From contig MSJI02000919.1 of assembly GCA_001931905.2 (NCBI GenBank), positions 21,507 to 85,506 on the forward strand: 64,000 bases of DNA, given 5' to 3'. Numbering within the stretch: position 1 is the first letter of the stretch; each line of letters begins with the position of its first letter. The DNA is from Cladosporium sp. IMV 00045 (lineage: Eukaryota > Ascomycota > Dothideomycetes > Cladosporiales > Cladosporiaceae). The notes below the pieces were generated by a model. The model was not told the origin of the DNA. It saw only the letters and a program-made list of their open reading frames with translations, and did not search any database. This document shows, in pieces, positions 416-63,960 of this stretch. Made by a program: the position numbers and the translations under genes.

Positions 416-750
416 AGCATTAATCTATAAAGAGGATAGATTAGTCTAATCTATATACTAGATTAGTTTGCGTCCTAACTTTAGGTTAGTTAAGTTGTTA
501 CCTTAGGTACTAACTTAGATTAGTCTATAACGTAGGGTCGTAACCTAGTTATAGCGATTACGTAGAGAGGCTTCTATACTCCTAGGAGTATTATATTATC
601 CCTTTTCTAGCCTAGCGTTATCCTAACGCTTATCTATAGCTAGAACTTTATTAGTTAACTTGCTTCCTTTCTTTATGTTTCCTAATAGCTTCTACTACTA
701 AATATAAACGCTTTCGACTTACTACTAAAACCGCTACTACTAGTACCGAA

Positions 751-1400: not shown

Positions 1401-1689
1401 TAACTTTATATAGTTCTTTTATTAAGGATCCTTTCTACTTTATAGGAAGGTTCTTATATTTCTAGATTAAAGTCTTCTATCTTATCCTATAGCGTAGCGT
1501 CTAGTATTACTAGTTCTAATAAAGATATATAGAATACTAGGTATATACGTATTTTCCTAGGTAGTTCTAGCTTAAAGCTAACTAGTCCCTTTTATTATCG
1601 AATTTTAAATAGTTCTAGTTTAACTATATCTAGTTTCTTACTTAGTTTATTCAATTTTATATTACGCTATAGGAGATAGACTTTATCCC

Positions 1690-4600: not shown

Positions 4601-4760
4601 ATGCCTCTTTATATACCCTAGCGTTATAAAGATTCCTATGTATCCGGAATTAATTAAGGCGATAGTACGAGCTATACCTATTATTACCTAAACCCGTAGG
4701 TTATTAGCGTAACGAGCCTTACCTACTAATACTATTCGTTATAGCCTAAGTAAATCCTAC
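1690..4760 (-). pseudogene. Decayed pol: protease, reverse transcriptase, RNase H, integrase
   Basis: Minus-strand translation shows four landmarks. Around 4,635-4,665 is the protease active site, with Asn in place of Asp (INSG). Around 3,610-3,720 is reverse transcriptase, with FGLTNA followed by YLNNILVYS, where the catalytic Asp pair has become Asn pair. RNase H should lie near 2,900-3,300. Around 2,050-2,330 is the integrase core, with the stretches AIDFI, ILVIIDRFTKFG and TNRDKLF. Dozens of in-frame stops are present. The Asp-to-Asn and Gln-to-stop changes are all C-to-T on one or other strand. The product cannot be functional. Edges are approximate. Confidence 0.85.
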
Positions 4761-5559
4761 TAAGGTCTATCTTCTAGAGGATCTAGGAGTTTCCTAAACT
4801 CCTCTTATAACTCTATTATAGGGTCTTAGGTATTAGTAGTCTTAGTTAGGTCTACGAGACTTATAGTACGTATCGAGTTATTACTAGTTCTTCGAATATA
4901 ACTTCGGATCGTGATATACTAGGTAGCAGCTAAATTCTTAGATCCTTTTGCTTATTATACTCTTCTTAGTAGTCTACCTATATCTATCGTACTCTACCTC
5001 TAATATAGAGTACGATATAGATCTCATCCTACGTAAAGTATAACCCCCTAGTCGTAAATTAACTTTCTAGTAGTAGTATCTCTTATATAATTCGAGAATA
5101 GTCTATACTATAAGGTTCTATTAGCATATTCTATAATATCCTCTAGATCCCTTAGTACTAATCTAGGAGTAGTCTCTTATAGACATATTATACTCCCTAG
5201 TACTATAGGAAAATGCAGCCTTACTACGCGATTAGCGTTCGTAATATAGCTAGTATTACGTCTCCTACCTAGAAGGTCTACGAGAATTCTTCTCGAGATA
5301 CGCTTCTAGTAGCGTTTCTTATCGATTCTATTCTACTTTCCTACTTAGCATTCTTACTCTCGGAATTGCTTTCTATACTACTATCCTTAGGCGTTCTATC
5401 CTAAATAGTTATTAGAGCGAGTTATCGTTCTTCCTACTAATAGGCAGGTCCTCTCTAAGCGTAGTAGATACTTTATCGTTAGTAACTTAGGAAATATCCT
5501 AATCTGTTTTTATTATTATAATAAATAGTATAGCTATTATCGTAGTAAGCTATCTAGGA

Positions 5560-6790
5560 TATTAATCTATAATTATCCTAATCCTTTAGAGCGCTAGTTC
5601 CTATAGTATTATATACGCTACGCTCTTATTCCACGTCTTCGTAGGTCTAATTATAGGTAGTAGTAATTATTACTAGCCTCGGAGACTCCTCCCCTATACT
5701 TATTCCTTTAGTTGCCTTAAATGCTTCCTGCCTTCTAGATTTCTATAGGTTATAACTCTACTTCTAGGCCTTATATTTGTTCTTAAAGTATCCCTTCTTA
5801 CTATAGCTATAATACTCGACCTATAACTTATCCTTAGACTTCTTTAGGCCTTTCTTCTAGCTTTTAGAACCTAGCTTGCCTTACGTAGCGTTAAGTTGCA
5901 TTTTCTATAACCTATAATAGTTGTCTCTCTATTTAGGAACTTCGCGCTTAGCCTTACTATTAGCTATACCTTTCTGCGAATAGTTTCTACTCTTTTCTAG
6001 CTAAAGTTCGAAAATCCGGTTATCGATCTTAATAGCTAGTTCTGCCATTTCCTTTAAGGTCGATAGTTAGTTATATCGAATTGTGATTTCCTCCCTAACT
6101 CTATCCTTTAATCCTCTATAGAACTAGGAAGCTAAAGCTTCGTTATTCCATTCGATCTTAGATACTAGGATCTAAAAATCCGTATAGTATTTTACCGCTA
6201 ACGTCCTCTAACGTAGGGCCCGGATGTCGCGTTCGGCTTTAATAGCCTCGTTACTATTATCGAATACTTCCTCTATTTCGTCGAAAAGGGACTTATAGTC
6301 CTTAAATAACTTCTTTATGTATTCCTTCTATTTAGATCCTAAATGCTATAGGAAATCCTTAAAATGCGGGTAGACCCAATCGTAGGCTAGTCTACGTAGG
6401 AATGACACGATATATAATACCTGCTTCCGTTCCGAACTAAGCTTATTTCCTCCTATCTTAATAGCGAAGAGGTACTGCATTCGGAACGCCTTAAACGTTC
6501 CCCGAGCTCTAGTAAACTCGGCTAGTATATTAACCTTAATCCTAGAAGTATTACCTACCGGAGTAGTAGTTACCGATAGGGGTTATAGGGCTATATTAGA
6601 TTCGATATGGAAATTATCGACCTACTAGGTAATAGTATCGATCGCTTCTACTTATTCGTCGGGAGTTAGCTCTAATCTAACTTCGGATAGTATATCTTCT
6701 TCTTTAGAGGTAGCTTCGCTAGATAATCGTTCGTCTTCCTTAGATATATACTCTATCTAGGACCCTAAGTCGCCTCTCGGTGCTTCCGAG
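5560..6790 (-). pseudogene. Decayed gag with zinc knuckle
   Basis: In minus-strand translation the region near 6,120-6,300 gives recognisable capsid-type sequence (RTLAVKYYTDF, SKIEWNNEALAS, FYRGLK) as in fungal Ty3/gypsy Gag. At about 5,770-5,825 there is a zinc-knuckle relic whose Cys and His ligands are now Tyr (YYSYSKKGYFKNKY). Several stops interrupt the frame. Gag therefore reads leftwards from the right LTR, which fixes the orientation of the element. Confidence 0.8.
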
Positions 6791-19828: not shown

Positions 19829-19947
19829 ACATACGACCATAGGTCAGTGAAAACTGGGCATCCCGTCCGCTCTGCCATACATAAGCACTGAACCGGGCGA
19901 CTAGTACTAGAGTGGGTGACCATCTGGGAATCCCGCCTGTTGTATGT
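19829..19947 (+). rRNA. 5S ribosomal RNA
   Basis: A 119-nt sequence beginning ACATACGACCATAGG and ending GTTGTATGT, closely like fungal 5S rRNA. The ends pair over nine positions, with one G-U pair, to form the terminal stem. The internal segments expected for 5S are present: CATCCCGTCCGCTC, AAGCACTGAACCGGGC (internal control region for TFIIIA/RNA polymerase III) and GGGTGACCATCTGGGAATCCC. A T-run follows directly (19,947-19,951) and would terminate RNA polymerase III. It stands alone between unrelated genes, as is usual for dispersed 5S genes of filamentous ascomycetes. Confidence 0.95.
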
Positions 19948-20440
19948 TTTTGCTCTTTAGTCACACCATTGTGAATCCTCTTTTTGCACCGCTTGAGCTC
20001 GTGAGTAGACTGATGTGAAGCGTCGTGTGGTTGACTAAGTTGGTTATCCAAGAGTTTTGGAAGCTAATGAGATGGTGTATCCATCGTGTCCGAGGCTGTA
20101 GATTCGCAAGTACTTGCCGCATTTACGTCCTTTCAGAGACTCAAAATGAGAGCCTTCGATTGTGCTCTCGCAGAATGGCCTTCGCCGTTCGTTCGTTTAC
20201 TCAGAGCTTCGCGGGGACGATTTGGATATAGTCTGACGAAGGATTCGAAGGATGCGCTTGTCGATCATGACGACCGATATCAAGGCGCAGCGCTGACAAT
20301 CCTTCAGCTGACTGCCATTGCTCAGAGCGCTCTCGTCGACTCGCCGTAAAGACTGACAAGCCTCTCACTACCACTGAGAGCCAACTTAACTAGACTATTG
20401 CGACTTGTGCTTCAAAGACTTGCAGCAGCGAACCGACAAT
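19948..20440. other. Intergenic after the 5S gene
   Basis: Contains the 5S terminator run and the presumed promoter of the phosphodiesterase gene. A short plus-strand open frame (20,086-20,349) has no supporting feature. Confidence 0.4.
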
Positions 20441-24985: not shown

Positions 24986-26257
24986 ATGATCATGTCTTCG
25001 ACATCAACGCAAGACTTGCGAGAGCATCCACTATATGAGGAAGAGCAGCAAACACAACAGGCTGCTCTATTGAACCCTCGATGCATAGCCAGCACTAGCG
25101 AAGCCTCCAGCAGTCTTATAACTCATAATACACCCAATACTGCATCAAGAAGTCACAGCAAGTATAATTATTCTTTCTTCAAAGAGGCCCAATTGAGCGC
25201 GGATGGCTCCACCATAGTCAGCCACAATGATGACCGTAGCCTGCGCACATTCGTACTCCCCGAAAACCTCGAGGACGAAAACAAACAACCACACACCCTC
25301 ACTCCAACCACCACCCTCCCCTCACCCACTAACATCCAGAGCTACGCGCTATACCCGGGCTTCACACAATCCGACCCAACCACCAACCTCCTCCTCTCCG
25401 CTCCAACCGACCTACCAATCCGCCTAACCCACTCCACCAACCCCTCAACCCCCCTCATGACCTACCCCTTCATCCACCCCCCAACAGAAGCCTACCAATC
25501 CCCCCACAGTCTCGCCTGGAGCCCTTTCAACAACCACTTCATCGCCGGCAGCAAAGGCTCCCTCGCCATCTTCGACGCCAACGTCGACGCCTCCGGCCCC
25601 ATCGCCACGCACAACAACAACCCGCGCGACCAACGCACCGCAGTCTCCAGCATGCGCGACAGCGGGCTAATAATGTCCCTCGCCATCTCCGGCGGCGGCA
25701 CCCTCGCAGCCGGCAGCTCCAACCGCAGCATTGGGATTTTCTCCACCTGCGGCCAAGGGCCGTGCGAAGCTGCCTTCTCCGTAGCACCCGCGCACGACGA
25801 CCCGCTCGCCTCGATCTGCAAAGGCACGGGCGTCACCTCCCTCGCCTGGTCGCCGGACGGCACCTACCTGCTCGCCGCCGAGCGGCAGAGCGATGGGATC
25901 CACGTCTTCGACGTGCGCTGCCAGCGGCGGCGGCTCGCGTGGCTCGCGGGGAGGAACGCTCTCACGCCGCAGAGGTTGGGGATTTCGACCGTGCAGGTCA
26001 TGTCGGGGGTGGAAGTTTGGGCGGGGGGCAAGGATGGGGCGGTGAGGATGTGGCGGAATCCGGGGTGGGGAGAGGGAGTGAGGGGGCCGGATGGGGTTTT
26101 TGAGGGAGTGCATGGGGATCCGGTTGGGAGTGTCGTTTGGGGGCCGGGAGGGAGGGAGATGGTTACTTGTTCGGGGCAGAGGAGGGTGGGTGGGGAGGAT
26201 TCGGATGATGAGGAGGAGGGTGGGGGGGATAGTAGTTTGAAGGTGTGGAGTGTTTGA
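24986..26257 (+). CDS. WD40 protein of the TCAB1/WRAP53 - Swt21 type
   Basis: Single exon, 423 residues (or 421 from the second ATG at 24,992). After a disordered N-terminus comes YNYSFFKEAQLSADGSTIVSH, typical of the start of the propeller in TCAB1/WRAP53 and yeast Swt21, which bind small RNAs or act in snRNP biogenesis. Further WD-type blades include PHSLAWSPFNNHFIAGS, GVTSLAWSPDGTYLLAA with HVFDVR, and a final SLKVWSV. The last quarter is Gly- and acid-rich (GGEDSDDEEEGGGDSS), a low-complexity insertion within a blade. The assignment to this WD40 subfamily is by pattern and less certain than the fold. Confidence 0.8.
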   Translation: MIMSSTSTQDLREHPLYEEEQQTQQAALLNPRCIASTSEASSSLITHNTPNTASRSHSKYNYSFFKEAQLSADGSTIVSHNDDRSLRTFVLPENLEDENKQPHTLTPTTTLPSPTNIQSYALYPGFTQSDPTTNLLLSAPTDLPIRLTHSTNPSTPLMTYPFIHPPTEAYQSPHSLAWSPFNNHFIAGSKGSLAIFDANVDASGPIATHNNNPRDQRTAVSSMRDSGLIMSLAISGGGTLAAGSSNRSIGIFSTCGQGPCEAAFSVAPAHDDPLASICKGTGVTSLAWSPDGTYLLAAERQSDGIHVFDVRCQRRRLAWLAGRNALTPQRLGISTVQVMSGVEVWAGGKDGAVRMWRNPGWGEGVRGPDGVFEGVHGDPVGSVVWGPGGREMVTCSGQRRVGGEDSDDEEEGGGDSSLKVWSV

Positions 26258-26393
26258 GCAGGGTTACGTTCTGACTTGATTTCAATTCGGCTTCACCTGG
26301 TGTGATGCAGGATTGTAAAGATACAATCTACCCTTCGCCGATCCTTAATCTATCCATAGCGCTCTACCGTCACAACACTACGAATGGGCCAAC

Positions 26394-29300
26394 TCAATGA
26401 ATCCTCCTCAACCCCTCCACAACCCCCCTAACCTCCTCAACCCCCCTCCCCAACCCCTCCACGGCACTCTCCATCCCTTCCTGATCCAAATCCAAAAACG
26501 CCTCCACCAACTCCCCATCGACAAACCTCACCGGCCCTTCATCGCCCATATCCCTGACCCCCGACCTAAACCCCCTGAAACGATTAAACTTCACGCCGCC
26601 GGGACTCTTGACCAGCTCCGCCAGCCTCGCCTGCAACCTCATGAGCAAATCCTGCAAATGCGGCGCAATGAGCGCGAAGAGGTAAATACTCCCGTCGACG
26701 GTGGCGAGGAAAGCGCGCGGGACGACGGGCGCGTTAGGGCTAGCTTGCACGTCCACGCGGCGGATGCGATTGACCATTTCGCCCAGGAGGAGCTCGCTCG
26801 TGACGCGCAGACGGCGCTTGTCCTCGGCCGCGTAGGAGGCGACGTCCTGCTCGAGCACGAGCAGGTTGCCCTCGGCGTCGGCTTCAAGGTAAGTGTTGGG
26901 CGCGACGCAGGCGACGGCCGTGCCCCAGACGGTTTCGTAGTGGCGGGCCGCTTCGGCGAGGGTGGAGGGCAGGCCGGAGCCGGAGGGGGAGGGGGTGTAT
27001 TCGACCAGGGAGAGGGATTTCATCAGGTCGGTGATGGCGATGGTGGAGTCGGTGACGGTGATGTCGATTGGGGCCGTGGCGGTGCGGTAGGAGGCTTTTT
27101 TGGATAGGAAGGGCGTGCTGGGCGTTTCGTATTCGAAGGCGTAGATTATGACCTGGCGTTGTTGTTAGGGGTCTGTTTTAGATAAGTGGTTCTGGATTTC
27201 TTGAACTTACCGTCTTGATGAGGGCCGCAACAATGTTGCCCTTGCACATGCTCAAGCAGCGACAAGCTCCTCTCAGTGCTTGCTCGGCGACTACCTTCAA
27301 CTGCCTGCTCTCGGTGACCTCGAACACCAGAATTCTTCCACGAGCGCTCTCCGCCGAGTCATCATCAAGGTACGCTGTGCCGACGACAAATCTCTCAGCA
27401 AGACCACCTGCGCCATCGTCAAGTTCGCATCTCATGCAGCTCTCGATCAGCTCGTCCTGGTTCAAGGCGAAAGTATGCAATTCTTGGAAAACGACTTCGT
27501 CAACCAGTTTGAAATGCGATTGGACTTCTTCGACGCCAGCCTTCAATGTTCTCTTGATGGTGCCAAGGCCAAAGGCCTTCAAACTCGAGCTGTACGCGAT
27601 GCGACGAACGGTCTCATGGACGGGTAGCGTTTCAACATGAGTTGTCCTCTCTTGATCGACGACGGCCAGTTTGAGCTCGCCTGTGTCCGCAGAAGCAATG
27701 GCAATGGCGCCGGGATAGGCTGCACTGTCGAATGGAGAGACACATGTCGTATCTTCCGCCGTGACAGCACTGTACACCATTCTCCCTTCGCTGCTGTAGA
27801 TCAATGAGGGGTGTTCGCAGATAGCAAGAACGTTCTGCAACCCGTCCGCGCGTGAGAGTGTGGTGAAGTTGGCTTGCTGGGTTCCGAGGACGATACTTTT
27901 GCGTGAGGAGAAGAGCTTGTCCTCCGACTCGACGGAGTATGTGACCACGTTGCCATCAGCAAGGCCGACGAAGAGGGTTGGCGGGCTATTTGGAAGAATT
28001 TTGGCGATCGCCAGCGAGCGAGGTACAGCCAGCGTGTCGTCCTCCGCCACTTGCTCTGTGGCAATGGGCTGTAGCGTGTCCATGTTGAGAAAGCTGACCT
28101 TGCTATCTTGCCAAAAGCCGACCACGCAAGCATTAGGAACTGCAGAGCTCAATGCCACACAGGAGACTTGTTCGCTGGCGGAAAACTCACGCTGCACCTT
28201 TACACTGATACCTGTACCAGCCAAGTCAAGCAGCACAAGCACAGCGCCCTTGAGAGAGACTAGTAGGTGATTGCCAGTCGCGGATACTGATGTGATGGAC
28301 ATGCCCTCAGGCGAACGCCAAGTGTCCGTGACCATGCCAGACTCAGAATCGGTCAATTGGATCGCCGAGCCGGTGACTTGCACCGCCCGGCCATCAGCCA
28401 GGTTACCAGCATACAACGTAGTCTCGGCCAGGTCGAAGCCCTGAAACTCGTCTACCTCCTCGACTTGACCTTCAGCGTCGAAGACAAACACCCTGGTATG
28501 GCTCACAAAGCTGACCACCAAAGTATCGGCCTCCTTAGAAGGCGCGTTAGTACTCGTCAAGCTGAAAATGGCCGATACTGGGGCACCCATTTCACCGATG
28601 GTGCCTAGATCTTCCAAGCCGACGCCAGAGCGAACGCTTCGTAGACTTCCGTCTTTGAAAGCACCAGAACCGGTCACAATGCGAGCCTGACCGCTGGAGA
28701 ACTCGTTCACGGGAGCGTCTGAAGAGCGATTGCCCATATCCATGACTGTAAAGTCCAGAATAGGTGCGATGTTTGCGAACGTCTGCACAACGTCAAGGCC
28801 GCGCTCTTTAATCTGAATAATCTGGCTATCACCCTGGTTGCTGCCGACAAAGATCCGGCCCTCGTCGAGGTAAACCAGCGTTGAAGCTCTTGAAGTCTCG
28901 CCTAGAACGTCGATTTGATGTCCTGCGTATTCGCCCTCTGCATTCTGCTGGATGAAAAGCAGGTAAAGCTTGCCGTAGTCATCGGCCAAGGCGTATCGTT
29001 GGTCATCCACAGCACACCAGGATACAAAGACGGTCGCTTCTTCCAAAGGCTTTGTCTTTTCAACCTTGTAGTCCCACTCCTCGACGTAGCTAATGCTAGT
29101 CTCACCCACGACCATGAAGCCATACATTGGTGGCGGCAGAGGAATCAGGTGACTCGCGCCCAGCTCAACCTCCCCCCGAACGTCTCGACCTTTCTCAAGC
29201 TCAGCGCTTGCCGGTTCTTCTTGAGGCCGCAATGAAGGCGTGTATTCCAGCTCTCGTACCTTGATGTGTAGTCTGTGCTGCGGGTCCTCTTCCAGCAGCA

Positions 29301-29889
29301 CAAGCTCGGGGTTCGGCAGTTTGGGGCCGGCCTGCCTTTTGTGTAGGAAACATGTGCTTCTGACAAACAGCTCCGGCACACGCACAGGTATGGGATCTTC
29401 GAGGTGGCCAATCTCATTGTCTGCCGCCTTCCTCTTGCCTTTGCCAGCATGGGCGATGGGTAGGACGTTGACGACGCCCTCGTAACATTCCAAGGTCATG
29501 AATCGATTACTTGGATCAATGTGCACTCTGTCGCCGGTTTGGTTGTCCCTCGCTGCCTTTTCTGCAACATCGACGCAGCTCTTCTCCGTCCGCAGCTCTT
29601 TTGACTCGGCATCCCAGCTTAATGTGAAGTAGTGGTATCTGTCTGTTCCCACGAATAGATGGTCCGTTTGTGACGTGGCCGGGCGCAGCTTGTGTAGAAG
29701 TGTGACCTTCCCGTATATGGTTTTGGAATGCTGGAGAGAGAGCTGTTCTGGTGCCTGCGGGTTTGGCGAGTAGATCTCAAGGCGATTGGCCTTTGCTACT
29801 ATGAGGTCGTCGCTGTCCGGGCTGAGAAATGAGATTTTGATGGCGTGCCGCACGCTCGATGGACGATGTATGGGCGCTATGTAGGCCAT
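26394..29889 (-). CDS. DNA damage-binding protein 1 (DDB1), CUL4 ligase adaptor
   Basis: Two exons, 27,211-29,889 and 26,394-27,152, joined by a 58-bp intron (GTAAGT donor); 1,145 residues, the usual length for DDB1. It begins MAYIAPIHRPSSVRHAI and ends VVEGLRRIH, both typical of the family. The N-terminal MMS1-type and C-terminal CPSF-A-type regions build three beta propellers that link substrate receptors to Cullin-4 in nuclear ubiquitin ligases used in DNA repair and heterochromatin control. Recognisable C-terminal blocks are FLATVDGSIYLFALI, FNRFRGFR and FVDGELVEAFLDL. The gene is head to head with the polymerase III subunit gene. Nothing unusual seen. Confidence 0.95.
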
Positions 29890-30337
29890 GGCTGGTTGTG
29901 TATGTTGGGTGTCGGTGTGGAAGTTCGAGTTGTATGTTGCAGATGAGTATCGTCGGTTGGAGGTGAGATGTTGACGTCTGCTCTGCTCTGCTTTGGTGTG
30001 GGTGATCGCTTCCAGGTAAGGACTGTATCAAGTCGCGTCTGCTTGAGTGGGTCTTGACGGAGAGTGTACCTCGTCACAGTGGTTATCCGCCTTGTTTTGT
30101 CGTTAATGTCTGTTTTCAAATTGGTGTTGGTTGATGTTTTCCACTAAACCCGCACCGTCATCAATCAATGATGCGCGTCTTATCGCCGCCGCAGCAGCCC
30201 GCCAGATCAAGCTCAAGCACCTCCACACGAGCCTCGGCTCGCCCGCAACCGTCAAGTGTGAGAACGTCAAACAAAATTCCACCATGTGCTGACAGCACGA
30301 CTCGACATCTATTCCCTTGCTTGAGCGCAACCACACC
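29890..30337. promoter_or_regulatory. Divergent promoter region, DDB1 / Rpc37
   Basis: 448 bp between two opposite start codons. It presumably holds both promoters and 5' UTRs. No conserved box could be assigned by eye. Confidence 0.4.
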
Positions 30338-31490
30338 ATGGCACGTAAGTCGCTTCACACATACCCTGATCGACCTCATGCCCACCATGAGACCTCATCG
30401 CTCACCAACTAACACTCCCACAGCCTCACGAGCGGTCGACGACGACCCAGTAACCGCCGAATACGACGTCTACCTCACCGCCGCGCAACAAGAGCAAATC
30501 TACCTGCTGCACTACCTGAACCGCACACGAGAGCGACCATACAGCCAGCGCTTCGGTGCGCAGCCCGTGGACGTGCGAATCAAGCCCAACTCCGGCCACT
30601 TGGAATTGGACGTCGAGCTCAGCACAAACTACAATTTCAACAAATACCAAGGCCTCAAATGGGGCGACGCAGTGCAAGCGTCGAAAACGATCCAGAACGA
30701 CTCAGGAACCTACGGCCCGGCCTCAGGCTTCGGCGTCCCCCGTGGCAAACCGGGCGGCCGCAACCAACTCAAAGACAAAGCGGACATTGAAAACCAAGTC
30801 GCCAACGACCTGGCCGCCTTCCGCGACGCCGTGGACGAAGACAAAGTGATGCACAAGCAAACCCTCGGCGGGCAGATCTTCCGCCACGACAACCAAGGCG
30901 AAGACATCTCCCAGCCCGTCTACTTCCTCGGCGCCTTCGCCGGAAACCAACTGCACCTCAGCAAAGTGGACGGCACGGTGCAAATGCGGCCTCAATTCCA
31001 CCACATCGACGCCGAAGCGCACCGCAATCGCCTCGCCACATCGCGCGCCACGGCAGAAGCGGACGGCGCAGCCGCGAAACCCGCGCCCGTCGCGCGCGGG
31101 CTGCAGCAGAGCTACAAGGAGATGTCGGACGACAAGGACAAAGACGCGCCGGAGCGGCTGATGCGCAAAGCGCTGGCGGACGCGGAGGAGGAGAGCTGGG
31201 TGCCGCTGGAGTATGTGGACGAGGCGGAGGAGGCGGCCTTCGAGCTTTTCCACGAGAGGATGTTTTTGCACGACGCGGAGCAGGCGCCGCAGTTGAATAG
31301 TGGCATGGATGACGATGCGTTCTTGGATGCCGTCAGTATGCCGAGGGAGGGCAGCCCGCATAGGAGGAGGAAGAGGCCGCCGAGGAAGAGGGATGTTGAG
31401 CAGGGGGATGTGGGTGCTGAGACGGCGGCGGCGGGGCAGGAAGAGGCTGTCGCGCAGAACGAGGGAGCGCAGGATCGTCTACCCTCCTGA
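30338..31490 (+). CDS. RNA polymerase III subunit Rpc37 (RPC5/POLR3E)
   Basis: Exon 1 is only 7 nt (30,338-30,344, Met-Ala plus one base). A 79-bp intron follows with GTAAGT, branch AACTAAC and a CACAG acceptor, then exon 2 (30,424-31,490); 357 residues. The protein starts MAPSRAVDDDPVTAEYDVYL. Its core has LHYLNRTRERPYSQRF, VRIKPNSGHLELDVEL and a long region corresponding to the Sin/Rpc37 fold that pairs with Rpc53 in termination and reinitiation by RNA polymerase III. The tail is basic (RRRKRPPRKR) then Glu/Ala-rich. An in-frame ATG at 30,168 exists only by reading through the intron and is rejected. Confidence 0.88.
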
Positions 31491-32021: not shown

Positions 32022-32912
32022 TCAAAAAAGCCTTGATCTTGCTGGCCTGCCGTGGGAGTCATTCGGGATGAATCGACCCGGAGCCGCGAGTGTCACGCTG
32101 CTCCGGTCCCGAGTTACCGAAAGACTGCGAGGAGTTTTCCCCTTCGCTTTGTTGGCTGTGAAAGTCTGGTCCCTTACTGGGCCCGGTCCCTCTGAGTTGC
32201 CGAATTTCTGCGAAGCGCTATCGCCCTCGGCTTCATTGTCCGAGAACGTCTGTTTGGGCATCGCGGATTGTTGACCTGGTAGAGTTCGGGGCGTCACGAC
32301 GGGATGTACGGTCTCGGGCAGAGCGACGGCTGAGCTCGGATTTCTCACAGCGACCTCCTTGCCAGTGTCGTCGGTCTGTTTGGTTCAGCATACAATCACT
32401 ACGCGCATCACAGGAGAACAGCTTACAGATGTACGCTCAATCCCGAACAAGATCCTCTCTATAACGGTAGGCGCTTGCGTCCGCGCCGGAAAGCCGGCCT
32501 CTCTGTTGGGTCCTTCCGCACTCATGTAGAGATTAAGCGTCTGGCAATCCAGCTGAAGCGAAGCGAAGCTCGAATCTACCTCTTTCTCGCGGATGACAAA
32601 ACCCAGCGCAGCGCGAAGCCTGCGAGTCGCAGAGTCGGTGGGCTTTTGGGATCTGGTCCGGATGATGTCGTGGAGGGCTTGGATCCTGTCTTGCACGGCT
32701 GAAAGGTAGCGGGCGAGGTCACTGCTATGCAGGTGTTCGCTCACGCCGATTTTTCGAACGGTCAGGCTCAAGATTTCCAGCTGTTGGCTTCTGTCTCGCA
32801 GCAGTGAAGGCCCGTTCTTGACGGCGGCGCGGATGTCGAGGATCGTCGAGACGATGTTGCAGGCGTACGCGAGTATTTGAACCCCGCTCGCGGCGGCGCC
32901 GAGTGCTTCCAT
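32022..32912 (-). CDS. HeLo-like/SesA-like protein with HRAM-like repeats (putative cell-death executor)
   Basis: Two exons, 32,427-32,912 and 32,022-32,375, with an intron having a GTAAGC donor and an AAACAG acceptor; 279 residues. Residues 1 to about 135 are helical, starting MEALGAAASGVQILAYACNI. This is the style of the N-terminal domains (HeLo-like, SesA, NACHT-associated) that precede fungal NLRs or stand in HET-S-type membrane-damaging effectors. After a Pro-rich linker come three related repeats: FSDNEAEGDSASQKFGNS (206-223), FTANKAKGKTPR (from 234) and FIPNDSHGRPARS (from 264). The first has the spacing F-x2-N-x3-G-x2-A-x-Q-x2-G-N. The domain order, helical domain then C-terminal amyloid-type repeats, is that of HET-S and HELLP proteins. 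The membrane-damaging function is inference. The gene is divergent from its partner by 401 bp. Confidence 0.75.
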
Positions 32913-33313
32913 TGCTATGAAGATATGAAGGTACTTTGTAGATGGGATGAGGGTCTGCTGTTCTTTTTCGCCCCTCGCACTTCACCGGTCGGGCAGGGCG
33001 GTTTGTGCGACTTGAGACGGACTTTTCATTGGACCCTGCTATATTACATACCGCGGTGGCGCAGCTCAAGGCATCTCGAAGGTGGTCAGCCTGGCACACA
33101 TGATACCGGATGATCGTTATCATGAATGGCCGCCTCGTCGATCATCCCGTGCCTTGGCAAGGCGGCATGCTTCTCTGAAGACTGGGTGCATAAATCAACC
33201 ATACCTGGACCATACGCCGCTCGACCCGTACGACAGCCTTTCTTCGTTTTGAACTGTTATAGTTCAGTCATGCATGTTCCTCGCGATCTTCACGAACGAC
33301 GAGCGACGTGGAC
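32913..33313. promoter_or_regulatory. Shared divergent promoter of the HRAM-like pair
   Basis: 401 bp lie between the two start codons on opposite strands, so the pair is probably regulated from a common region. No individual site was recognised. Confidence 0.5.
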
Positions 33314-34109
33314 ATGTCGCAGCAACATTTGCAACTAAACGACTTGAGCCAGCAGGGTTTCGAAAGCAACAGTGTCGGCGGTCAACACGCCAGGCAGCAC
33401 TTGGGCAATTCCAACTATTCGAGCTCTCACAACGTGATCAACAATTATTACTCCGCCAGTCCACACGGGTCAAACAGAATCCCACAACGCGAGGATGCCG
33501 AGGAGGACCAGGGTCCCGGACCAGTTTTGGATCGCCAGCACATCGGAGGAAGACACCCCAGCTCCCTCAGGAGCTTCGTCCATTCACGAAGTTTTCGACG
33601 ATGGGCGATACCAATCATGATCGTCCTAGTGATCCTTGTCGCAGCTCTCCCGCCTTCGCTGATCCTGACGAACCGAGCGACTGGGTCGTCGGAAAACGAG
33701 TAAGCGTAACCGACTTAAGAGCAGGCGAAGCACAAGCTAAACGATATATAGGGCGGAAGGCTCGTCGACAGACACCACCCGTGATTCCACAACCGCCGAA
33801 GCCTCGCCATCAAGCACACCAACGAACGCGCCCAAAACATCTTCCTCAGGCACAGACACAGCCAGTGATCCATCAAACGCCACGCCAGGAAACACTCTCT
33901 CTTCCAGCCAGTCCACGATCACAGACTTGACCACAGTCTCCCTCCCAAGCGATGATCCGCGCGCCTCAACGTTTTCCACTTTCGTCTGTCAATGGGGATG
34001 CCCCGGGCGACCTTGCGTCTCCGACCAAGACTGCGGCGAGCAACCGCTGGGCACGACGACGGTCCAGATCTGGTGTGTACAGGCGAACAAGACTTGCGCT
34101 ACGCCCTGA
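33314..34109 (+). CDS. Single-pass membrane protein with cytosolic HRAM-like motif and outer Cys-rich domain
   Basis: Two exons, 33,314-33,699 and 33,752-34,109, with a 52-bp intron (GTAAGC, branch GCTAAAC, TATAG); 247 residues. No N-terminal signal peptide. Residues 16-33 read FESNSVGGQHARQHLGNS, then comes a Gln/Asn/Tyr-rich stretch (HNVINNYY). Positive residues (RSFRR) precede a membrane segment at 97-119 (WAIPIMIVLVILVAALPPS), predicting N-in/C-out topology. The outer part is a Ser/Thr-rich, probably O-glycosylated stalk with N-glycosylation sites (NAT, NKT). It ends in a short domain with six Cys between FVCQWGCPGRPC and NKTCATP. The tail motif matches the first repeat of the divergent neighbour in spacing. 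I know no named family for the whole protein; a sensor role is inference. Confidence 0.75.
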
Positions 34110-34328: not shown

Positions 34329-35750
34329 TCACCTCCCCTTCTTCCACTCCAACACCCTATTTCCAGCCTCCACCAGATAAAAATCCCCATAACTCAGTCC
34401 GGTGTCGAAATTCTTCGGCTCCGCTTGCGGATTATTGTTACTCGTCGCATGCATCAGAACTCCCTCAAACCCCCTCGACTCGCTCGTGTTGGCAGGCGTG
34501 TCGAGGCCCGTCTCCGCGCCCAGCGCAGGACTGTCCGCGAAACTGATCTCGCCGGCGAGCGAGAGCGAGATGCTCGAGGAGAGGAGGGAGAGGGCGGAGG
34601 CGCGGTAGTTGCGCTGTTTGCCCTTTTGCCTCAGCTTCTTGCTCTGGCGGTGGGCGGAGCGGTCTGGTTTGCTAGAAGCGGATTTCTCAAGCTGCTCTTG
34701 CAGCAAGATCATCCCGCTGGCGGCAATGCTCGCCGCACTGCTATCGCGCGGCGTGACGCCGGGCAGCTCCTCAGCGTCGAAGTCCCAGAACGGCAGCCCG
34801 TCTTCGGGGAGGTGGTCGATGAACCAATCCGCCATGCGGCGGGCGGTGCGCAGGTAGGCTTCGTCGCCGGTGAGAGAGTAGAATTCTGCGAAACCGTAAA
34901 ACCCCCACGCCTGGCCGCGGGCCCAGGTGCTGTTGTCCGCGAGGCCTTGGGCGGTGCGGCAGGTGTAGACGGCGCCGGAGGTGGCGCTGTAGTCGCAGAC
35001 GTGGAAGGAGGAGCCGTCGGGGCGGATGTGGTGGGTCATTGTTTTGTCGGCGTGCGAGACGGCGATGGACAGGAGGGTGGTGTTGTGCGTGTAGGTTGAG
35101 GCGCTGCGGGCGAGGAGGGCGAGGTTCATCATGTTGTCGATTATTACTAGGACGGAGTCGGGGTGGGAGCAGCGGGAGAAGGGGGAGGTGGAGTTTTCGG
35201 CGCAGTCCCAGGATCTGATGATGCCGGCGCCGGGTTCGAAGCGGGCGGCGAGGTTGAGGGACATGTTGTGTAGGACTGGCAGGTAGGTGTCTTCGTTGAG
35301 GATTTGCATGGCGCTTTCGAAGGGTTTGGCTAGGAAGCCGAGATCGTGGGTGTTGGTGAGGTTGATGTTGGTCTGCAGAGGGTCTGTCCATGCTTTTGCC
35401 ATTGCCAGCCATTCTTCTGGTGAGGGCTCGTGGGGGTAGTCATCTCGGGGTGCTAGATCGATCCTTCTACGGTATGCCTGCCACAATGAGTCCGGGTAGA
35501 ATCCAGACGTCCATCCTGATGCGTCTGTTTTGACGTACGCTCCTGGAAGGACGCCATCCTCTTGAGGCGTGTTGTTGTATGCTCCTTGAGTGAAGTGTGG
35601 CCATCCATGCTCGTCTCCCAAGGTCGGAGGTCCGGTCAATGCAATCCGCCACAGACGTGCATATACGTTCTCGGCGAACATTGCGCCGAGTTCATCGGGT
35701 GCCGCCCAAGAGACTCCGGTACAGTAAAGCAGGAGAAGGTTGGTTCTCAT
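34329..35750 (-). CDS. Secreted glycoside hydrolase family 88 (unsaturated glucuronyl hydrolase)
   Basis: Single exon, 473 residues, with a signal peptide (LLLLYCTGVSWA). An alpha/alpha-barrel enzyme that removes unsaturated uronic acids left by polysaccharide lyases. Family landmarks are WTSGFYPDSLW (about 80-90), THDLGF with Asp136, IIDNMMNL with Asp205 (the two acids known to be catalytic in bacterial GH88) and WARGQAWGFYGFAEFY (about 276-291). The C-terminal NFDTGLSYGDFYLVEA also fits. Residues about 352-380 form a very basic low-complexity insertion (KPDRSAHRQSKKLRQKGKQ) between two helices where family members are normally short. The gene ends 219 bp from the receptor-like gene, tail to tail. 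Confidence 0.88.
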   Translation of the reverse strand: MRTNLLLLYCTGVSWAAPDELGAMFAENVYARLWRIALTGPPTLGDEHGWPHFTQGAYNNTPQEDGVLPGAYVKTDASGWTSGFYPDSLWQAYRRRIDLAPRDDYPHEPSPEEWLAMAKAWTDPLQTNINLTNTHDLGFLAKPFESAMQILNEDTYLPVLHNMSLNLAARFEPGAGIIRSWDCAENSTSPFSRCSHPDSVLVIIDNMMNLALLARSASTYTHNTTLLSIAVSHADKTMTHHIRPDGSSFHVCDYSATSGAVYTCRTAQGLADNSTWARGQAWGFYGFAEFYSLTGDEAYLRTARRMADWFIDHLPEDGLPFWDFDAEELPGVTPRDSSAASIAASGMILLQEQLEKSASSKPDRSAHRQSKKLRQKGKQRNYRASALSLLSSSISLSLAGEISFADSPALGAETGLDTPANTSESRGFEGVLMHATSNNNPQAEPKNFDTGLSYGDFYLVEAGNRVLEWKKGR

Positions 35751-59106: not shown

Positions 59107-61410
59107 TTAGTCAACGGGCATGATATTGCACTTGATCCCTTCATCCTCCTGTGATTTGACACGCAAATATTCGTTGAGAGCCATCATAGGGAAATAGTGA
59201 CTGTAGAAAGTGTAGCCAAGGTAAAAATGGTTCGGAAACCCGGTACCTGTGAACCTTTCCGTCGACCATGTCAGAGCAGGGACAAAACTTTCTGAGTTGT
59301 GACCTTCCGGGCTTGTAGCACGGGGTTCAACTGCTTCACTCTTGAAGCAACGCTCTGGATGTTGTGGATCAGCACCATTCCTGCTGCGGGTGTTCACAGC
59401 AGATCTCAAGCCTGACACCGACTGAGTGGAAACGAGATGCCGGGTTCCTCGATCAATCGCTGGATGAGATGTGGAAAGATATGGTAGAAGACCCATGAGC
59501 GCCCAGGCCGTTTGAGATGGTGTTGAGGGGGCGTGAAGTAGTTTGCGGAGATCCATCCAGTTGTGGCGAGTAATCGTCTTAAATTGATAGGTCTGAAGTG
59601 ACTCGCCCCAACCGCCGTCTTCGTTCTGAGAATCTATCAGAAAGCGCAAGGCTTTTTGTATCATCGTGGCAACAGTTCCTCGAGCGATGACGCTCGTACT
59701 TGTATGGGAAGGCTCGAATTTGGTGTCTGCGTCGGGGAAATAGTGGTACGCAAGACCAGAAAGCACATTGCATGTTCCATAAATGTAGTTTGCTCCCCAT
59801 CTCCCGTACCACGCTCCGCAGATCGTCTGCGTCTTAGCCAAAAAGGCTATCCCACGTTGACAAGCGTCATGCATTCGTTTCACCAGCCCGTCAATTTGAG
59901 GGTTGCGGCATGATCCTTTTTCCGAAGCAAGCAGCATGAATAGTCCAAATGCCTCTAGAACACGGCCAACAATGTCAGATGTGGATGGATCACAGAGGCT
60001 ATCCATATCAGAGAAAGGAATCTTGTTGAGAAAGAGTTTGTCGTTCTCCACATCAAACGCGGCCCACCCCCCGTCTTTATTCTGCATTCCGAGAACCCAT
60101 TTGACTGCGTCTAGTACATGTGGGCTAGTCAATGCAGAGCCGTCGTCTTTGAGAAAGGCTATGATGGCTGCAGAGGTGTCGTCAACGTCCGGATACCAAG
60201 TATTATGATACTCGAAACTGAAGCCACCGGGAGCCAGCAACCGTCGATAGACACGCCAGTCTCCGTGATTCTCAAGAAGTTGTCGTGCCTTGACCCAGTC
60301 CAGTCCAGCTTTGCGCATGCTATTCGCATTGTGGCACCATGGCATAGTCGTTACTGCATTCGGTATGCCGGATAGTGCGATCGACATGAGCACAGTGTCC
60401 CAGAGCGGGCTGACACAAGCTTGCATGCGCTTGCCTCTGTCATCTTGCCATGCGAAATCTTCGATAGCGGAGAGAGCACGACGCACACGTCCGTCTTCCA
60501 TGTCATAGCCCTCTAGGATATATGCCAACGTTCCAACGTGCATCGGCGGAAAGATTCCTGCCCAATCGCCAGAAGTCTCTTGGTGCGAGATAATCCACTC
60601 CATGCAGCGGTTAATGGCGATCCTTCTGAGGGGATTGTAATACCTGAGTCCTCCGAGAGTCTTCAGTGCATTGTCGATTGCCGCGAATATCGAAGCATTG
60701 TAGTCGCCATCCGCTAGAATGTTAAGAACACCTTTGTGGTAAGGCACGTTCTTTTGCGCTGAGTCGCACCAGAGCTCGTCTAGGAAGTCGCTTGAGGGCG
60801 ACGAGCCATTTGGCAGAGCGAATATAGGCTTATGATGACAGACCACAAGAAGGGGAACAACAGTGCTTCGGGCCCAGGAGGATAAAGTGTAGATGTTGAT
60901 TGGAGCTGCAGCAGGCATGAAGATCAATTCCGCCGGGAGTTCAGGCACAGCTGTCCAAGGAAGTAAGCCAAAGGTGGCGAGGTATATTCTTGTGAACACT
61001 CTGACGTTCTCAACACCACCACCTGCGGTGGTGATCCATCTCTTAGCTCTCAACATGGCCACAGATTGGTCGAGTGACTGGCCAAGTATCTTCAATGCAA
61101 GATAAGCTTCCGTCGACGTGGAGACATCCCCAGGCTCACCAGGAGCGTTGCTCCATGAACCATCTTCGTTCTGTTCTGAAAGTAGGTATCGACAGAGAGC
61201 GTCCCTGTCCGTGACCAATCGCTGATGTTGAATTGCTTGTAACAAGAAAACATACTCGGCTGTGATGGTGCAATTGGATTTCAGTTCTCCACACCAATGG
61301 CCGTCGGCTTGCACAGAGTCATTGGCAAACTGACAAGCCTGGTGCAATGCTTTTAGGACTTGGTGATGTAAACTGCCTGTCAGACTCTTGCTGCGAGCCG
61401 GAAGTCCCAT
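59107..61410 (-). CDS. Squalene-hopene-cyclase-type triterpene cyclase
   Basis: Single exon, 767 residues from the ATG at 61,410 (an in-frame ATG at 61,521 adds a basic stretch of 37). The fold is the alpha/alpha-barrel pair of class II triterpene cyclases. The protonating acid motif is DVDD at residues 408-411 (WYPDVDDTSAA), as in bacterial squalene-hopene cyclases; oxidosqualene cyclases have a different D-C-T-A motif here. QW-type repeats are visible as QNEDGSW, QNKDGGW and QNEDGGW, and the C-terminal block FTGTGFPNHFYLGYTFYSHYFP is typical. About 45 polar residues are inserted before that block. Likely product is a hopane-type or related triterpene made from squalene, bound to membranes; the substrate is inferred. 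Lack of introns fits the known bacterial ancestry of fungal members. Confidence 0.9.
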   Translation of the reverse strand: MGLPARSKSLTGSLHHQVLKALHQACQFANDSVQADGHWCGELKSNCTITAEYVFLLQAIQHQRLVTDRDALCRYLLSEQNEDGSWSNAPGEPGDVSTSTEAYLALKILGQSLDQSVAMLRAKRWITTAGGGVENVRVFTRIYLATFGLLPWTAVPELPAELIFMPAAAPINIYTLSSWARSTVVPLLVVCHHKPIFALPNGSSPSSDFLDELWCDSAQKNVPYHKGVLNILADGDYNASIFAAIDNALKTLGGLRYYNPLRRIAINRCMEWIISHQETSGDWAGIFPPMHVGTLAYILEGYDMEDGRVRRALSAIEDFAWQDDRGKRMQACVSPLWDTVLMSIALSGIPNAVTTMPWCHNANSMRKAGLDWVKARQLLENHGDWRVYRRLLAPGGFSFEYHNTWYPDVDDTSAAIIAFLKDDGSALTSPHVLDAVKWVLGMQNKDGGWAAFDVENDKLFLNKIPFSDMDSLCDPSTSDIVGRVLEAFGLFMLLASEKGSCRNPQIDGLVKRMHDACQRGIAFLAKTQTICGAWYGRWGANYIYGTCNVLSGLAYHYFPDADTKFEPSHTSTSVIARGTVATMIQKALRFLIDSQNEDGGWGESLQTYQFKTITRHNWMDLRKLLHAPSTPSQTAWALMGLLPYLSTSHPAIDRGTRHLVSTQSVSGLRSAVNTRSRNGADPQHPERCFKSEAVEPRATSPEGHNSESFVPALTWSTERFTGTGFPNHFYLGYTFYSHYFPMMALNEYLRVKSQEDEGIKCNIMPVD

Positions 61411-62305
61411 GCTGGGGGACGGAGAGTATTGATATTGTGTATAGCGCAAACAAGAGGTAACACATGATGGAGAACACAGCGATCTATGTATCCGAATCAC
61501 ATTTGGCCGTCTTCGCTTCACACGATGATGCGTGGTCCGATACTAATCATGGAGCTCAACGAAAAGGGTACTGAGTCGGTCGGTTAGTGGTTGAGACGTT
61601 TATCCCGAGACAGAGGTCAACACGCAACTGCAGTGGCCAGGGATAGACGCCGAATTCTCGTGATAGATCGACTTGATATGAATGAGTTCTGCGGCTGGGT
61701 AATAGCATCAGACCCTTTGCAACAACTTCAGAGGCTTTAACGAGTTTCGAGATTGTTTCCTTATTAGGGTATTGCAATAGCAGATTCCAATAATGGTGGA
61801 ATTCCATTGCTTTCATCCAAGCGCCTTCGTTGAGTATCCGTACGTATCAATGCCTGCCTATATGTGAATTCTGCATGTCATACTGGACGTTCAACCGCAT
61901 GTGCTTATGACTGACGAACTGATACCAGAGATCATTGAACGGCTTTCGTTCTTTCCACTGCATGCAAATCTTTTTTTTAATCCGTTCGATCGTCGATCTC
62001 ACGTTAGTATCGCATTGTTGCTGTATCGCAGGCTTCTTGAGAGGTTTAGGCCAAGTTGGGATATGTACAACAAATCAGCCCATCGGTGCAATAGTCACAG
62101 GTGCTTTGTACCACTGTCTCGGGACACCGTACGTGCATAGAAGTCGCAGCTCTATGGTAAGAAAGACGATCCGATAGCTGTGACCGCCTTCAAACCTTCC
62201 GCTAAGACCACTACGTGCATGCCTGCATTGTTCTACATCTCAACTTTTTTTTCGTTTCGCAGGAGTTTCGTCCCCTTCGCACAACGACGATTTTACGGCT
62301 CTACA
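61411..62305. other. Divergent promoter region, cyclase / P450
   Basis: 895 bp between opposite start codons. A minus-strand open frame of 86 codons (61,556-61,816) has no recognised domain. The region presumably carries the control sites for both genes; inverted CGG-type sites for the Zn2Cys6 regulator could not be assigned. Confidence 0.4.
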
Positions 62306-63960
62306 ATGATCAAAGATTTGTTTTTCCAAACATTACCAATAGCTTTGGCTATTGGACTTGCTATGATCGCTTACATCTCACACTTACTGTTCTTCTCCGG
62401 TAAACTACCAGAAGGAGTACCATGGGGGCCATCTGGAAACAACGGGATCTTGTCCGCGCTCGACAGTGCTGTAAGTACTGCAATGGATGTTCGCGCCATC
62501 TTTGAGAGAAGCAGTGTGCTCCCTGCCGCAAAGTCGCACGGATTCGCCATCTCAACTTTGCTGGACGGAACTTTCATTGCCTTGCCTTTGCGCAATATCA
62601 AATGGCTATCAACGCTGCCTGAGGGCATTGCGTCGTTCTACAATGCGCAGCAGGATCGTCTGGCATTAAGCTTCACTGTACCTGCTGCTACTCTCACCGA
62701 CCCTGCGGCAACCAAGCTTTTGGTCAAAATCATGACACGGCGGTCAAAGAGTACCGTACCCGACTTGTGCGATGAGGTCAGACATGCTTGTCAGGAAAAT
62801 TCATGCAAGGGAAGTGACTGGCAATCGCTATGTCTATACCCCGAGCTCTTGCGCATATCGGCCGCCACCACGAACCGAATGGCCGTCGGGCTGCCTTTGT
62901 GTAAGTACGAGATCATCGCATAGCTTCCTACAAACCTGACCGCGCGTAGGCCGTGATCCTGAATACCTAGAGCTTTTGTCGGATTACAGCAAGACAGCCT
63001 TACCATCAGCTTTGATTCTTCGTACCTTTCCACCTGCGCTTCGATCCGTAATAGGCTATCTCGTCAAGGCATGGAGAGTCCGCCGCTATCATCACCCTCT
63101 CTTGCGATTGCTTGTGCCTGAGATTACTCGGCTCTGGGATGAACAAAAAGATGACAAAAAGTTCAGAGACAAACAAACATTCGCCTCGTGGTGGATAGCA
63201 GAGACTGCAAACCGCGACGACGTGGTTGCAATTGATCCTAAGCCATTGGGAGAGATCATAATGCAACTGAACTTTGCGGGCTTGCACACGACGTCCCTCG
63301 CAGCGAAAAATGTCTTCTATCACATCCTTTCCTACCCAAGAGCGAATGAGCTAATCAATGATATTCGGGCTGAGGCTGACCGGTTTTTGTACCATGATGA
63401 TGGCGAAATGACATGGGCTTGCCTGGAGAGGATGGTTATACTGGACAGCGTCATTCGCGAATCACTCAGACTCGCACCGCTAGACGCTGCTGCGATCAAC
63501 CGGACAATTTTGGAGGACGTTGAAACGCCGGATGGCCTGACACTGTTGGCAGGTACGAGAGTGTGCGTGCCTGGCTATCTCGCAAACATGGACCCTCTGT
63601 TTTACAACAATGCACACACCTTCGATCCCCACAGGTTCCTTGAGAAAACTACTGGCGGCAAGGTTGAGAAATCCTGGACCATCACGGATAACTTCACGAC
63701 CTTTGGGCATGGTCTCCATGTGAGTAAATTTGATCAGATTACGATTGATAGGAAAGCTAACGATGTCTAAGGAGTGCGCTGGACGGTGGTTTGCCATTGC
63801 TGAGATCAAGTTGATGGTTTCATATTTCTTGGTGAATTACGACATGCAAGCGTTGCCCTCGATGCCAAAGGCGTTTAGCCTTGCTACAATGCTGATTCCG
63901 TCGACGACTCAGAAGATTCGTATTCGGGAGCGACAAGGGAGGGCTCAGATGAAGATGTAG
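62306..63960 (+). CDS. Cytochrome P450 monooxygenase
   Basis: Three exons, 62,306-62,900, 62,950-63,719 and 63,772-63,960, giving 517 residues. An N-terminal membrane anchor (LPIALAIGLAMIAYISHLLFF) is followed by the Pro-rich hinge (LPEGVPWGP). The oxygen-activation helix reads NFAGLHTTS, with His where many P450s have Asp or Glu. The ExxR motif is ESLR (Glu369, Arg372), then FDPHRF, and the heme loop FGHGLHECAGRWFA with Cys457, split by the last intron. The start at 62,306 gives a normal-length anchor. Placed head to head with the cyclase, it probably oxidises the cyclised triterpene in the endoplasmic reticulum. The gene is complete and ends 40 bp before the window edge. Confidence 0.9.

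What the first reader, a model, noticed from the sequence alone, without database searches (positions are those of the whole stretch)
32022..34109. Divergent gene pair sharing an HET-s-type amyloid motif, with a transmembrane receptor-like partner
Seen: the minus-strand protein carries FSDNEAEGDSASQKFGNS (206-223) and the plus-strand protein carries FESNSVGGQHARQHLGNS (16-33). F, N, G, A, Q, G, N and S fall at offsets 0, 3, 7, 10, 12, 15, 16 and 17 in both. Known: fungal NLR and HET-S/HELLP gene pairs are neighbours and signal by prion-like templating of such motifs (HRAMs). Inference: here the sensor is not an NLR but a single-pass membrane protein with an outer Cys-rich head, so an outside signal could seed amyloid on the inner face and trigger a HeLo-like membrane-damaging partner. 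I know of no described fungal system with this architecture.
Basis: partly seen in the sequence, partly recalled or inferred. Interest (0 to 1): 0.93.

Follow-up and report, generated by a model that had tools for sequence, protein, structure and literature searches.

The report
Putative fungal membrane-receptor amyloid-signalling gene pair
Two neighbouring fungal genes share a short conserved motif, once on the probable inner tail of a single-pass membrane protein and twice on the tail of a helical protein that resembles cell-death executors, which suggests that a cell-surface protein rather than the usual internal sensor may switch on cell death by seeding a protein fibre.

Summary
The minus-strand gene (279 aa) has a helical, weakly SesA-like N-terminus and a tail with two motif copies, not one. 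The second copy is split over two frames in this assembly. An unnamed relative has both in frame (P0008), and its membrane gene (P0005) lies on a contig of equal length. The plus-strand gene (247 aa) carries one copy near its N-terminus, then one membrane span, an S/T-rich stalk and a six-Cys head. A profile of effector repeats alone ranks that copy first outside the effector gene among 250,580 windows; 0 of 5000 shuffles reach it. The copy is kept in all four in-frame sequences seen. Two copies on one protein and one at the neighbour's N-terminus is the HET-S/NWD2 layout, but the neighbour is no NLR. Against one relative the Cys head diverges fast, as a recognition domain might. Not shown: amyloid, membrane damage, ligand, interaction. 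No Pfam HET-s match; SesA scores are below cut-off; the fold is inconclusive. Best reading: an amyloid-signalling pair triggered by a surface protein, a new variant of a known kind. Nearest analogue: Drosophila PGRP-LC/IMD.

The parts
32427..32912 (-). effector-like gene, exon 1 (residues 1-162), contains the helical, weakly SesA-like domain
   Evidence: gene model; homologues P0001-P0003
32376..32426 (-). 51-nt intron (GTAAGC...ACAG)
32022..32375 (-). effector-like gene, exon 2 (residues 163-279 in the main frame), C-terminal tail with motif repeats
   Evidence: relative P0008
32514..32909 (-). helical domain, residues 2-133, weakly SesA-like
   Evidence: PF17107 E 0.22 in the window protein, beside four other weak families at E 0.11-0.18; E 3.7e-4 in homologue P0003, 0.073 in P0001, none in P0002, all under the curated cut-off; predicted helices H2-32, H37-57, H64-88, H95-133, mean pLDDT 56.5
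32193..32252 (-). motif repeat R1, residues 204-223 (QTFSDNEAEGDSASQKFGNS)
32110..32168 (-). motif repeat R2, second copy, split over two reading frames in this assembly
   Evidence: in-frame counterpart in P0008
32913..33313 (.). 401-bp intergenic region between the divergent start codons
   Evidence: gene models
33314..33699 (+). membrane-protein gene, exon 1
   Evidence: homologues P0005-P0007
33700..33751 (+). 52-nt intron
33752..34109 (+). membrane-protein gene, exon 2 (stalk and Cys-rich head)
   Evidence: relative P0004
33353..33412 (+). single N-terminal motif copy R0, residues 14-33 (QGFESNSVGGQHARQHLGNS)
33605..33670 (+). probable membrane span, about residues 98-119; basic residues on its N-side suggest N-terminus inside
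   Evidence: Kyte-Doolittle 2.65 over 19 residues; topology inferred
33752..33971 (+). S/T-rich stalk; 68 of 71 compared residues identical in P0004
33972..34109 (+). six-cysteine C-terminal head; 32 of 45 residues identical in P0004, all six Cys in register

Best explanation
The two genes are a receptor-effector pair that signals by templated assembly of a shared amyloid-type motif. The plus-strand protein sits in the plasma membrane with its N-terminus inside and its six-Cys head outside. When the head binds something and the proteins cluster, the single inner R0 motif takes up a beta-arch fibre fold. This seeds the two-repeat tail of the minus-strand protein, whose helical SesA-like domain is thereby released to act on the membrane and kill or arrest the cell. 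Shown here: the anatomy, the shared motif, its two-plus-one arrangement and its presence in relatives. Inferred: topology, kinship of the helical domain to SesA/HeLo, amyloid formation, seeding, membrane action and an outside signal.
For: The effector tail has two motif copies, in frame in relative P0008 and split in the window; the partner has one copy at residues 14-33. An effector-only profile finds R0 as its best place outside the effector gene among 250,580 windows, and 0 of 5000 shuffles reach it. R0 matches 7 of the 9 columns invariant among three effector repeats, against 3 of the other 11 when any effector repeat may match (one-sided Fisher p 0.035), or 2 of 11 against the window R1 alone (p 0.012). 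R0 is kept in 4 of 4 in-frame sequences (window, P0005-P0007) with at most two substitutions from the window. P0005 (membrane gene) and P0008 (effector tail) each come from one contig of 11,985 bp, which I take to be the same contig. R1 and R2 carry opposite charges at facing places, E/K twice in the window and D/R once in P0008; inter-repeat charge complementarity is a published trait of HRAM pairs (PMC4518210, passages). R0 has 2 charged residues against 5 in window R1, as reported for receptor-side motifs. Homologue P0003 matches SesA at E 3.7e-4. None of the listed NACHT, NB-ARC or SesA matches of the genome lies on this 190-kb contig, and R0 and P0008 queries list no other clear copy in the 49.9-Mb genome. 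Against P0004 the Cys head changes at 13 of 45 residues and the stalk at 3 of 71 (p 0.0003), while the exon-1 reading frame of the effector differs from P0001 at 1 of 175.
Against: No match to Pfam HET-s PF11558 nor of the motif profile or P0008 to HET-s-type solved structures. Position 8 of the motif is Asn where HRAMs have a hydrophobic residue, and the motif is one residue longer. SesA scores are under the curated cut-off; in the window protein four unrelated families score as weakly as SesA (E 0.11-0.22), and P0002 has no SesA match. The window's R1 and out-of-frame half of R2 also face each other with like charges once (D/E), and P0008 R1 and R2 have few charges (2 and 3), so the charge contrast with R0 is not general. 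Models are of low confidence (pLDDT 56.5 and 59.7) and the two give different neighbours. In the window R2 is frame-broken. Homologues are few and close (84-93 % for membrane exon 1), so conservation there is weakly informative. The fast-changing head rests on one relative, and the linker between motif and membrane also changes there. No 19-residue stretch of the effector exceeds a hydropathy of 1.6. Amyloid, topology and toxicity are untested.
Confidence: 0.58

Rival explanations
1. The two-repeat protein is an ordinary SesA-type amyloid effector switched on by an unlinked NLR. The membrane protein is a dock, decoy or brake that uses the same motif to recruit the effector to the membrane or hold it there, not a sensor.
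For: The genome gives 79 NACHT and 20 NB-ARC matches at E up to 0.01 (some places overlap), and non-adjacent NLR-effector amyloid pairs are proposed in PMC9815663 (passages). A membrane-anchored motif could equally inhibit.
Against: A 44-residue R0 query lists only its own place in the genome, and a regex finds no other copy in the loci of 30 of the 79 NACHT places; the other 49 were not read. The fast-changing Cys head fits recognition better than docking.
Confidence: 0.2
2. The shared segment is a non-amyloid binding motif: a short polar strand by which the membrane protein and the helical protein bind each other in some ordinary signalling or trafficking role.
For: The motif is Q/N/S/G-rich with a weaker hydrophobic core than HRAMs; no match to any amyloid family in Pfam or to solved amyloids. 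The membrane protein has one weak match, DUF1180 (FAM174-like membrane protein) at E 0.17, under its cut-off.
Against: Tandem repeats on one partner and a single copy on the other, near the published layout; opposite charges between repeats at some places; SesA match of P0003.
Confidence: 0.14
3. The resemblance is chance or low-complexity similarity between two unrelated Q/N/S-rich tails.
For: Eight identities in 18 alone are reached by 351 of 2000 shuffles.
Against: Effector-only profile: 0 of 5000 shuffles, best place outside the effector gene in 250,580 windows and in the immediate neighbour gene. Repeats and motif kept in relatives.
Confidence: 0.04
4. The pair is a real amyloid-signalling system in relatives, but in this strain the effector is a decayed copy because its second repeat is frame-broken.
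For: R2 split over two frames while P0008 is in frame. Compatible with the best explanation, as a statement about this strain only.
Against: R1, the helical domain and R0 are all open in the window; P0001 keeps the exon-1 frame with 1 of 175 changes; an assembly error cannot be excluded.
Confidence: 0.35

Closest known systems
NWD2/HET-S of Podospora anserina and the HRAM pairs (PMC4518210: section 4 and passages; PMC5485727: passages)
   Same: Adjacent gene pair; HeLo-related (here weakly SesA-like) N-terminal domain with two C-terminal motif repeats on one protein, single motif copy at the N-terminus of the other; invariant G followed by a polar residue; short G-containing inter-repeat loop; some opposite charges between repeats.
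   Different: Partner is a single-pass membrane protein, not an NLR. Core position 8 is Asn; motif one residue longer; no PF11558 match. Amyloid not tested.
HRAM5 / HELLF of P. anserina (named as HRAM5 in PMC7885112, passages)
   Same: Gln at core position 16, described for HRAM5; Gln at position 3, described for HRAM2 and for a supergroup merging HRAM2 and 5 (PMC4518210, passages; the text names HRAM5 in two supergroups).
   Different: No sequence alignment to HELLF was made here; the resemblance rests on published position descriptions and my own numbering.
SesA of the Nectria haematococca ses/sigma locus (PMC5485727, passages)
   Same: SesA-type HeLo-related domain with an amyloid-type motif.
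   Different: Sigma motif is about 40 residues with a three-fold repetition of submotifs, and its partner is an NLR (HET-eN).
Drosophila PGRP-LC / IMD (PMC9496462, passages)
   Same: Surface receptor with a cytosolic amyloid (cryptic RHIM) motif that, on ligand-driven clustering, induces amyloid of the same kind of motif in a downstream protein.
   Different: Animal, unrelated RHIM-like motif, output is NF-kB signalling through an adaptor; no HeLo/SesA effector (recalled).
Mammalian necroptosis, RIPK1/RIPK3-MLKL (PMC12881547, passages)
   Same: Amyloid motif assembly upstream of a four-helix membrane-damaging domain, triggerable from cell-surface receptors.
   Different: Kinase relay; the surface receptor itself lacks the amyloid motif (recalled).

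Membership tests
HRAM (HET-s-related amyloid motif) pair | two motif repeats at the C-terminus of a HeLo/HeLo-like/SesA protein | tested here: met
   two repeats: in frame in P0008, R2 split in the window; that the N-terminal domain is SesA is itself only weakly supported
HRAM (HET-s-related amyloid motif) pair | single motif copy at the N-terminus of the adjacent gene's product | tested here: met
   R0 at residues 14-33
HRAM (HET-s-related amyloid motif) pair | invariant G at position 19 followed by a polar residue | tested here: met
   GN in all six aligned copies
HRAM (HET-s-related amyloid motif) pair | hydrophobic residues at positions 5, 8, 10, 16, 18 | tested here: not met
   F at 5 and F/L at 18 met; A/T/V at 10 partly; N at 8 not; Q at 16 only as in HRAM5; one extra residue between 12 and 16 (sequences; numbering mine)
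HRAM (HET-s-related amyloid motif) pair | inter-repeat loop of 6-18 residues | tested here: met
   nine residues between GN of R1 and Q of R2 in both the window and P0008, about 6 by the 21-position numbering (read; range)
HRAM (HET-s-related amyloid motif) pair | match to Pfam HET-s_218-289 (PF11558) | tested here: not met
   only 38 of 155 published double-repeat proteins match it
HRAM (HET-s-related amyloid motif) pair | amyloid beta-solenoid formation and seeding | not testable with these tools
   needs experiment
NLR-based amyloid signalosome | partner contains a NACHT or NB-ARC domain | tested here: not met
   no NLR family in the membrane protein or in P0005 and P0006; none of the listed NACHT or NB-ARC matches lies on contig C915
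SesA domain (PF17107) | score above the curated cut-off of 26.3 bits | tested here: not met
   window 12.1 bits over model positions 2-109; P0001 13.7, P0003 21.1 bits (E 3.7e-4), P0002 no match
HeLo/MLKL four-helix fold | four-helix bundle matching MLKL/plant NLR CC domains | tested here: inconclusive

The most novel reading that the evidence does not exclude
A fungal cell-surface receptor that reports an outside signal by seeding an amyloid on its cytosolic tail, which templates a SesA/MLKL-like executioner encoded next door. This would be a membrane-receptor branch of fungal amyloid signalling, built in parallel to insect PGRP-LC/IMD, with a fast-evolving recognition head and a private motif class.
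Probability: 0.45. Interest if true: 0.92.

Novelty: new variant of a known kind. Interest (0 to 1): 0.77.

Why it matters
In the papers I saw, fungal amyloid signalling has an NLR as its sensor. One survey started from HeLo-related proteins and looked for NLRs next door (PMC4518210, passages and section 4); another started from NLRs and from effectors near NLRs (PMC9815663, passages). Of 155 two-repeat HeLo-related proteins in the first, 98 had an adjacent NLR, so 57 did not and could hide partners like this one. A review says that fungi do not seem to have extracellular pattern-recognition receptors with LRR motifs and raises the open identity of the sensors for other microbial molecules (PMC9119436, passages). 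A membrane protein wired by an amyloid motif to a cell-death-type domain would make that question directly testable.

Tried and rejected
Chance similarity: rejected by the effector-only profile, though plain identity counts are not special. Hidden NLR nearby: Pfam on ten large ORFs of the window found none (smaller ORFs not scanned), and none of the listed NACHT, NB-ARC or SesA matches lies on C915 (for NACHT 87 of 117 candidates were scored). Other copies of the motif in the genome: none by regex in 66 sequences (65 loci and the window), which include loci of 30 of 79 NACHT places and 25 of 25 SesA places, and none clear with protein queries R0 (one candidate, its own place) and P0008 (one further match, with stops, at E 1.2). 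PP-type pattern NxGxQxG: no match in those 66 sequences. Paralogue of the effector: a degenerate piece with stops and an N run (L004) and one match at E 3.24. Paralogue of the stalk/head: none convincing (best E 0.556, with a stop). Solved HET-s-type structures did not appear for the motif profile (one unrelated match, E 1.4) or P0008 (none). No chain named HeLo or HET-S is in the 50 rows shown for each fold comparison, which does not exclude them. Foldseek gave no match at E under 0.001 for either model. The organism was not identified. Papers: the rows listed by the searches (and 69 for the insect analogue) named no fungal amyloid-motif membrane receptor; some searches found more papers than they listed (20 of 17,844; 15 of 23; 10 of 155), and the library holds open-licence PMC papers only.

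Full report
WHAT IS THERE. Two genes are transcribed away from each other with 401 bp between their start codons. The minus-strand gene has exons 32912-32427 and 32375-32022 and encodes 279 aa. The plus-strand gene has exons 33314-33699 and 33752-34109 and encodes 247 aa. Both introns (51 and 52 nt) begin GTAAGC.

A MISSED SECOND REPEAT. 84 nt after the first motif copy the minus gene has another. Its first half (QTFTANKAKG) is in the main frame, its second half (EGENSSQSFGNS) in another frame. The second half matches the first repeat at 8 of 12 places, which 2 of 20,000 shuffles of the out-of-frame peptide reach. Thus the tail is, or was, a two-repeat tail. In relative P0008 both repeats are in frame. 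Whether the break in the window is real or an assembly error cannot be told here.

IS IT MORE THAN CHANCE. By identity alone the pair is unremarkable (351 of 2000 shuffles); by BLOSUM62 score it is at the 0.9 % level (18 of 2000). The stronger test uses a profile from three effector repeats (window R1, P0008 R1, P0008 R2) that has not seen the membrane protein. Over six frames of 63 sequences (272,470 nt, some loci overlapping, 250,580 windows counted; the seven loci that repeat the pair were left out, the window kept) the best place outside the effector gene is R0 in the neighbour gene at 20.9 bits; the next unrelated one scores 15.7. None of 5000 shuffles of the membrane protein reaches 20.9. 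R0 agrees with the effector repeats at 7 of 9 columns that are invariant among them, and at 3 of the other 11 when any effector repeat may match (p 0.035), or 2 of 11 against window R1 alone (p 0.012).

RELATIVES. Three protein searches of 5.8 billion sequences gave eight homologues, all from one source ('lgn') and unnamed. Effector exon 1: P0001 (1 of 175 residues changed), P0002 and P0003 (55 and 50 %). Membrane exon 1: P0005, P0006, P0007 (84-93 %), all with R0 kept (one or two substitutions in R0). Effector exon 2: P0008 (63 %); its R1 differs from the window's at 9 of 20 residues, and the residues that stay include the nine columns Q-F-N-G-S-Q-F-G-N also shared with its own R2. P0005 and P0008 each occur on one contig of 11,985 bp, which I take to be the same contig; P0001 and P0004 both list a longest contig of 5,780 bp. 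P0004 reads exon 1 of the membrane gene in a wrong frame and exon 2 in the right one; over the motif the out-of-frame reading differs from the window's at one residue of 37. Genes in that source seem cut at introns, so full-length orthologues were not seen.

THE MEMBRANE PROTEIN. One strongly hydrophobic stretch (about residues 98-119) and no other 19-residue stretch above 1.6, so no N-terminal signal-like stretch; basic residues before it; then a stalk rich in S and T and a head with six Cys; sequons at residues 34, 171 and 241. This suggests N-terminus inside and head outside, by inference. Against P0004 the stalk keeps 68 of 71 residues but the head only 32 of 45, with all six Cys in register (p 0.0003). 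That is what a recognition domain under pressure to change would show, but it is one comparison. The out-of-frame exon 1 comparison differs at 17 of 141 residues, with a cluster in the linker between motif and membrane, so the head is not the only changing part. Pfam gives only a weak DUF1180 match (E 0.17).

WHICH KIND OF MOTIF. Numbered by me like HRAMs (Q at 3, F at 5, G at 19), the motif has Q3, F5, N8, A/T/V10, G12, then one extra residue, Q16, F/L18, G19, N20 (sequences). Q at 16 is given for HRAM5 and Q at 3 for HRAM2 and a supergroup merging HRAM2 and 5 (PMC4518210 passages); HELLF is the HRAM5 protein of Podospora (PMC7885112 passages). N8 and the extra residue do not fit. Facing residues of R1 and R2 have opposite charge at positions 9 and 11 in the window and at one place in P0008, but like charge (D/E) at one place in the window; position 11 is among those reported for HRAMs. 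It is best called HRAM-like, outside the five described groups. It does not match the PP pattern nor the published description of sigma.

HOW IT PROBABLY WORKS. By analogy with NWD2/HET-S: clustering of the receptor-side motif nucleates a beta-arch fibre that templates the two-repeat tail and frees the helical domain to act on the membrane. The new element is that the nucleator sits in the membrane with an outside head. A like logic is described in insects, where PGRP-LC nucleates IMD through cryptic RHIMs (PMC9496462 passages). Steps shown: anatomy, shared motif, repeat number, presence in relatives. Steps inferred: topology, fibre formation, seeding, cell death, signal.

NOVELTY. In the rows listed by seven paper searches and in passages of ten papers (one section) I saw no fungal membrane receptor with an amyloid signalling motif. 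I rate it a new variant of a known kind.

Noticed in passing
window 1-6000: G+C falls to 28-34 % in the first 6 kb, against 47-58 % beyond 8 kb, as in mutated repeat regions of fungal genomes; no gene of interest followed there.
   Followed up: no
window 19829-19948 (+): 5S rRNA gene (Rfam RF00001, 81.6 bits).
   Followed up: no
window 24986-31490: Flanking genes: a WD40 ORF (24986-26254), an RSE1/DDB1/CPSF1-type beta-propeller protein (27178-29889, -) and an RPC5-type RNA polymerase III subunit (30168-31490, +). On this side the pair's neighbours look like housekeeping genes, not an NLR cluster.
   Followed up: partly
window 34329-35750 (-): ORF of 473 aa without a Pfam match at E 0.001; it looks like a secreted unsaturated-glucuronyl-hydrolase type protein (recalled impression, not tested).
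   Followed up: no
window 59110-63767: Squalene-hopene/oxidosqualene-cyclase-like gene near a cytochrome P450 ORF: possible triterpenoid cluster.
   Followed up: no
L004 1501-1683: Degenerate relative of part of the effector's helical domain (36 % identity over query residues 35-95, two stops, an N run next to it) on another contig.
   Followed up: partly
whole genome G000: 79 NACHT, 20 NB-ARC and 25 SesA matches are listed (17 SesA over cut-off). NACHT matches with equal scores on C154, C155, C503 and C685 may be duplicated contigs or recent copies.
   Followed up: no
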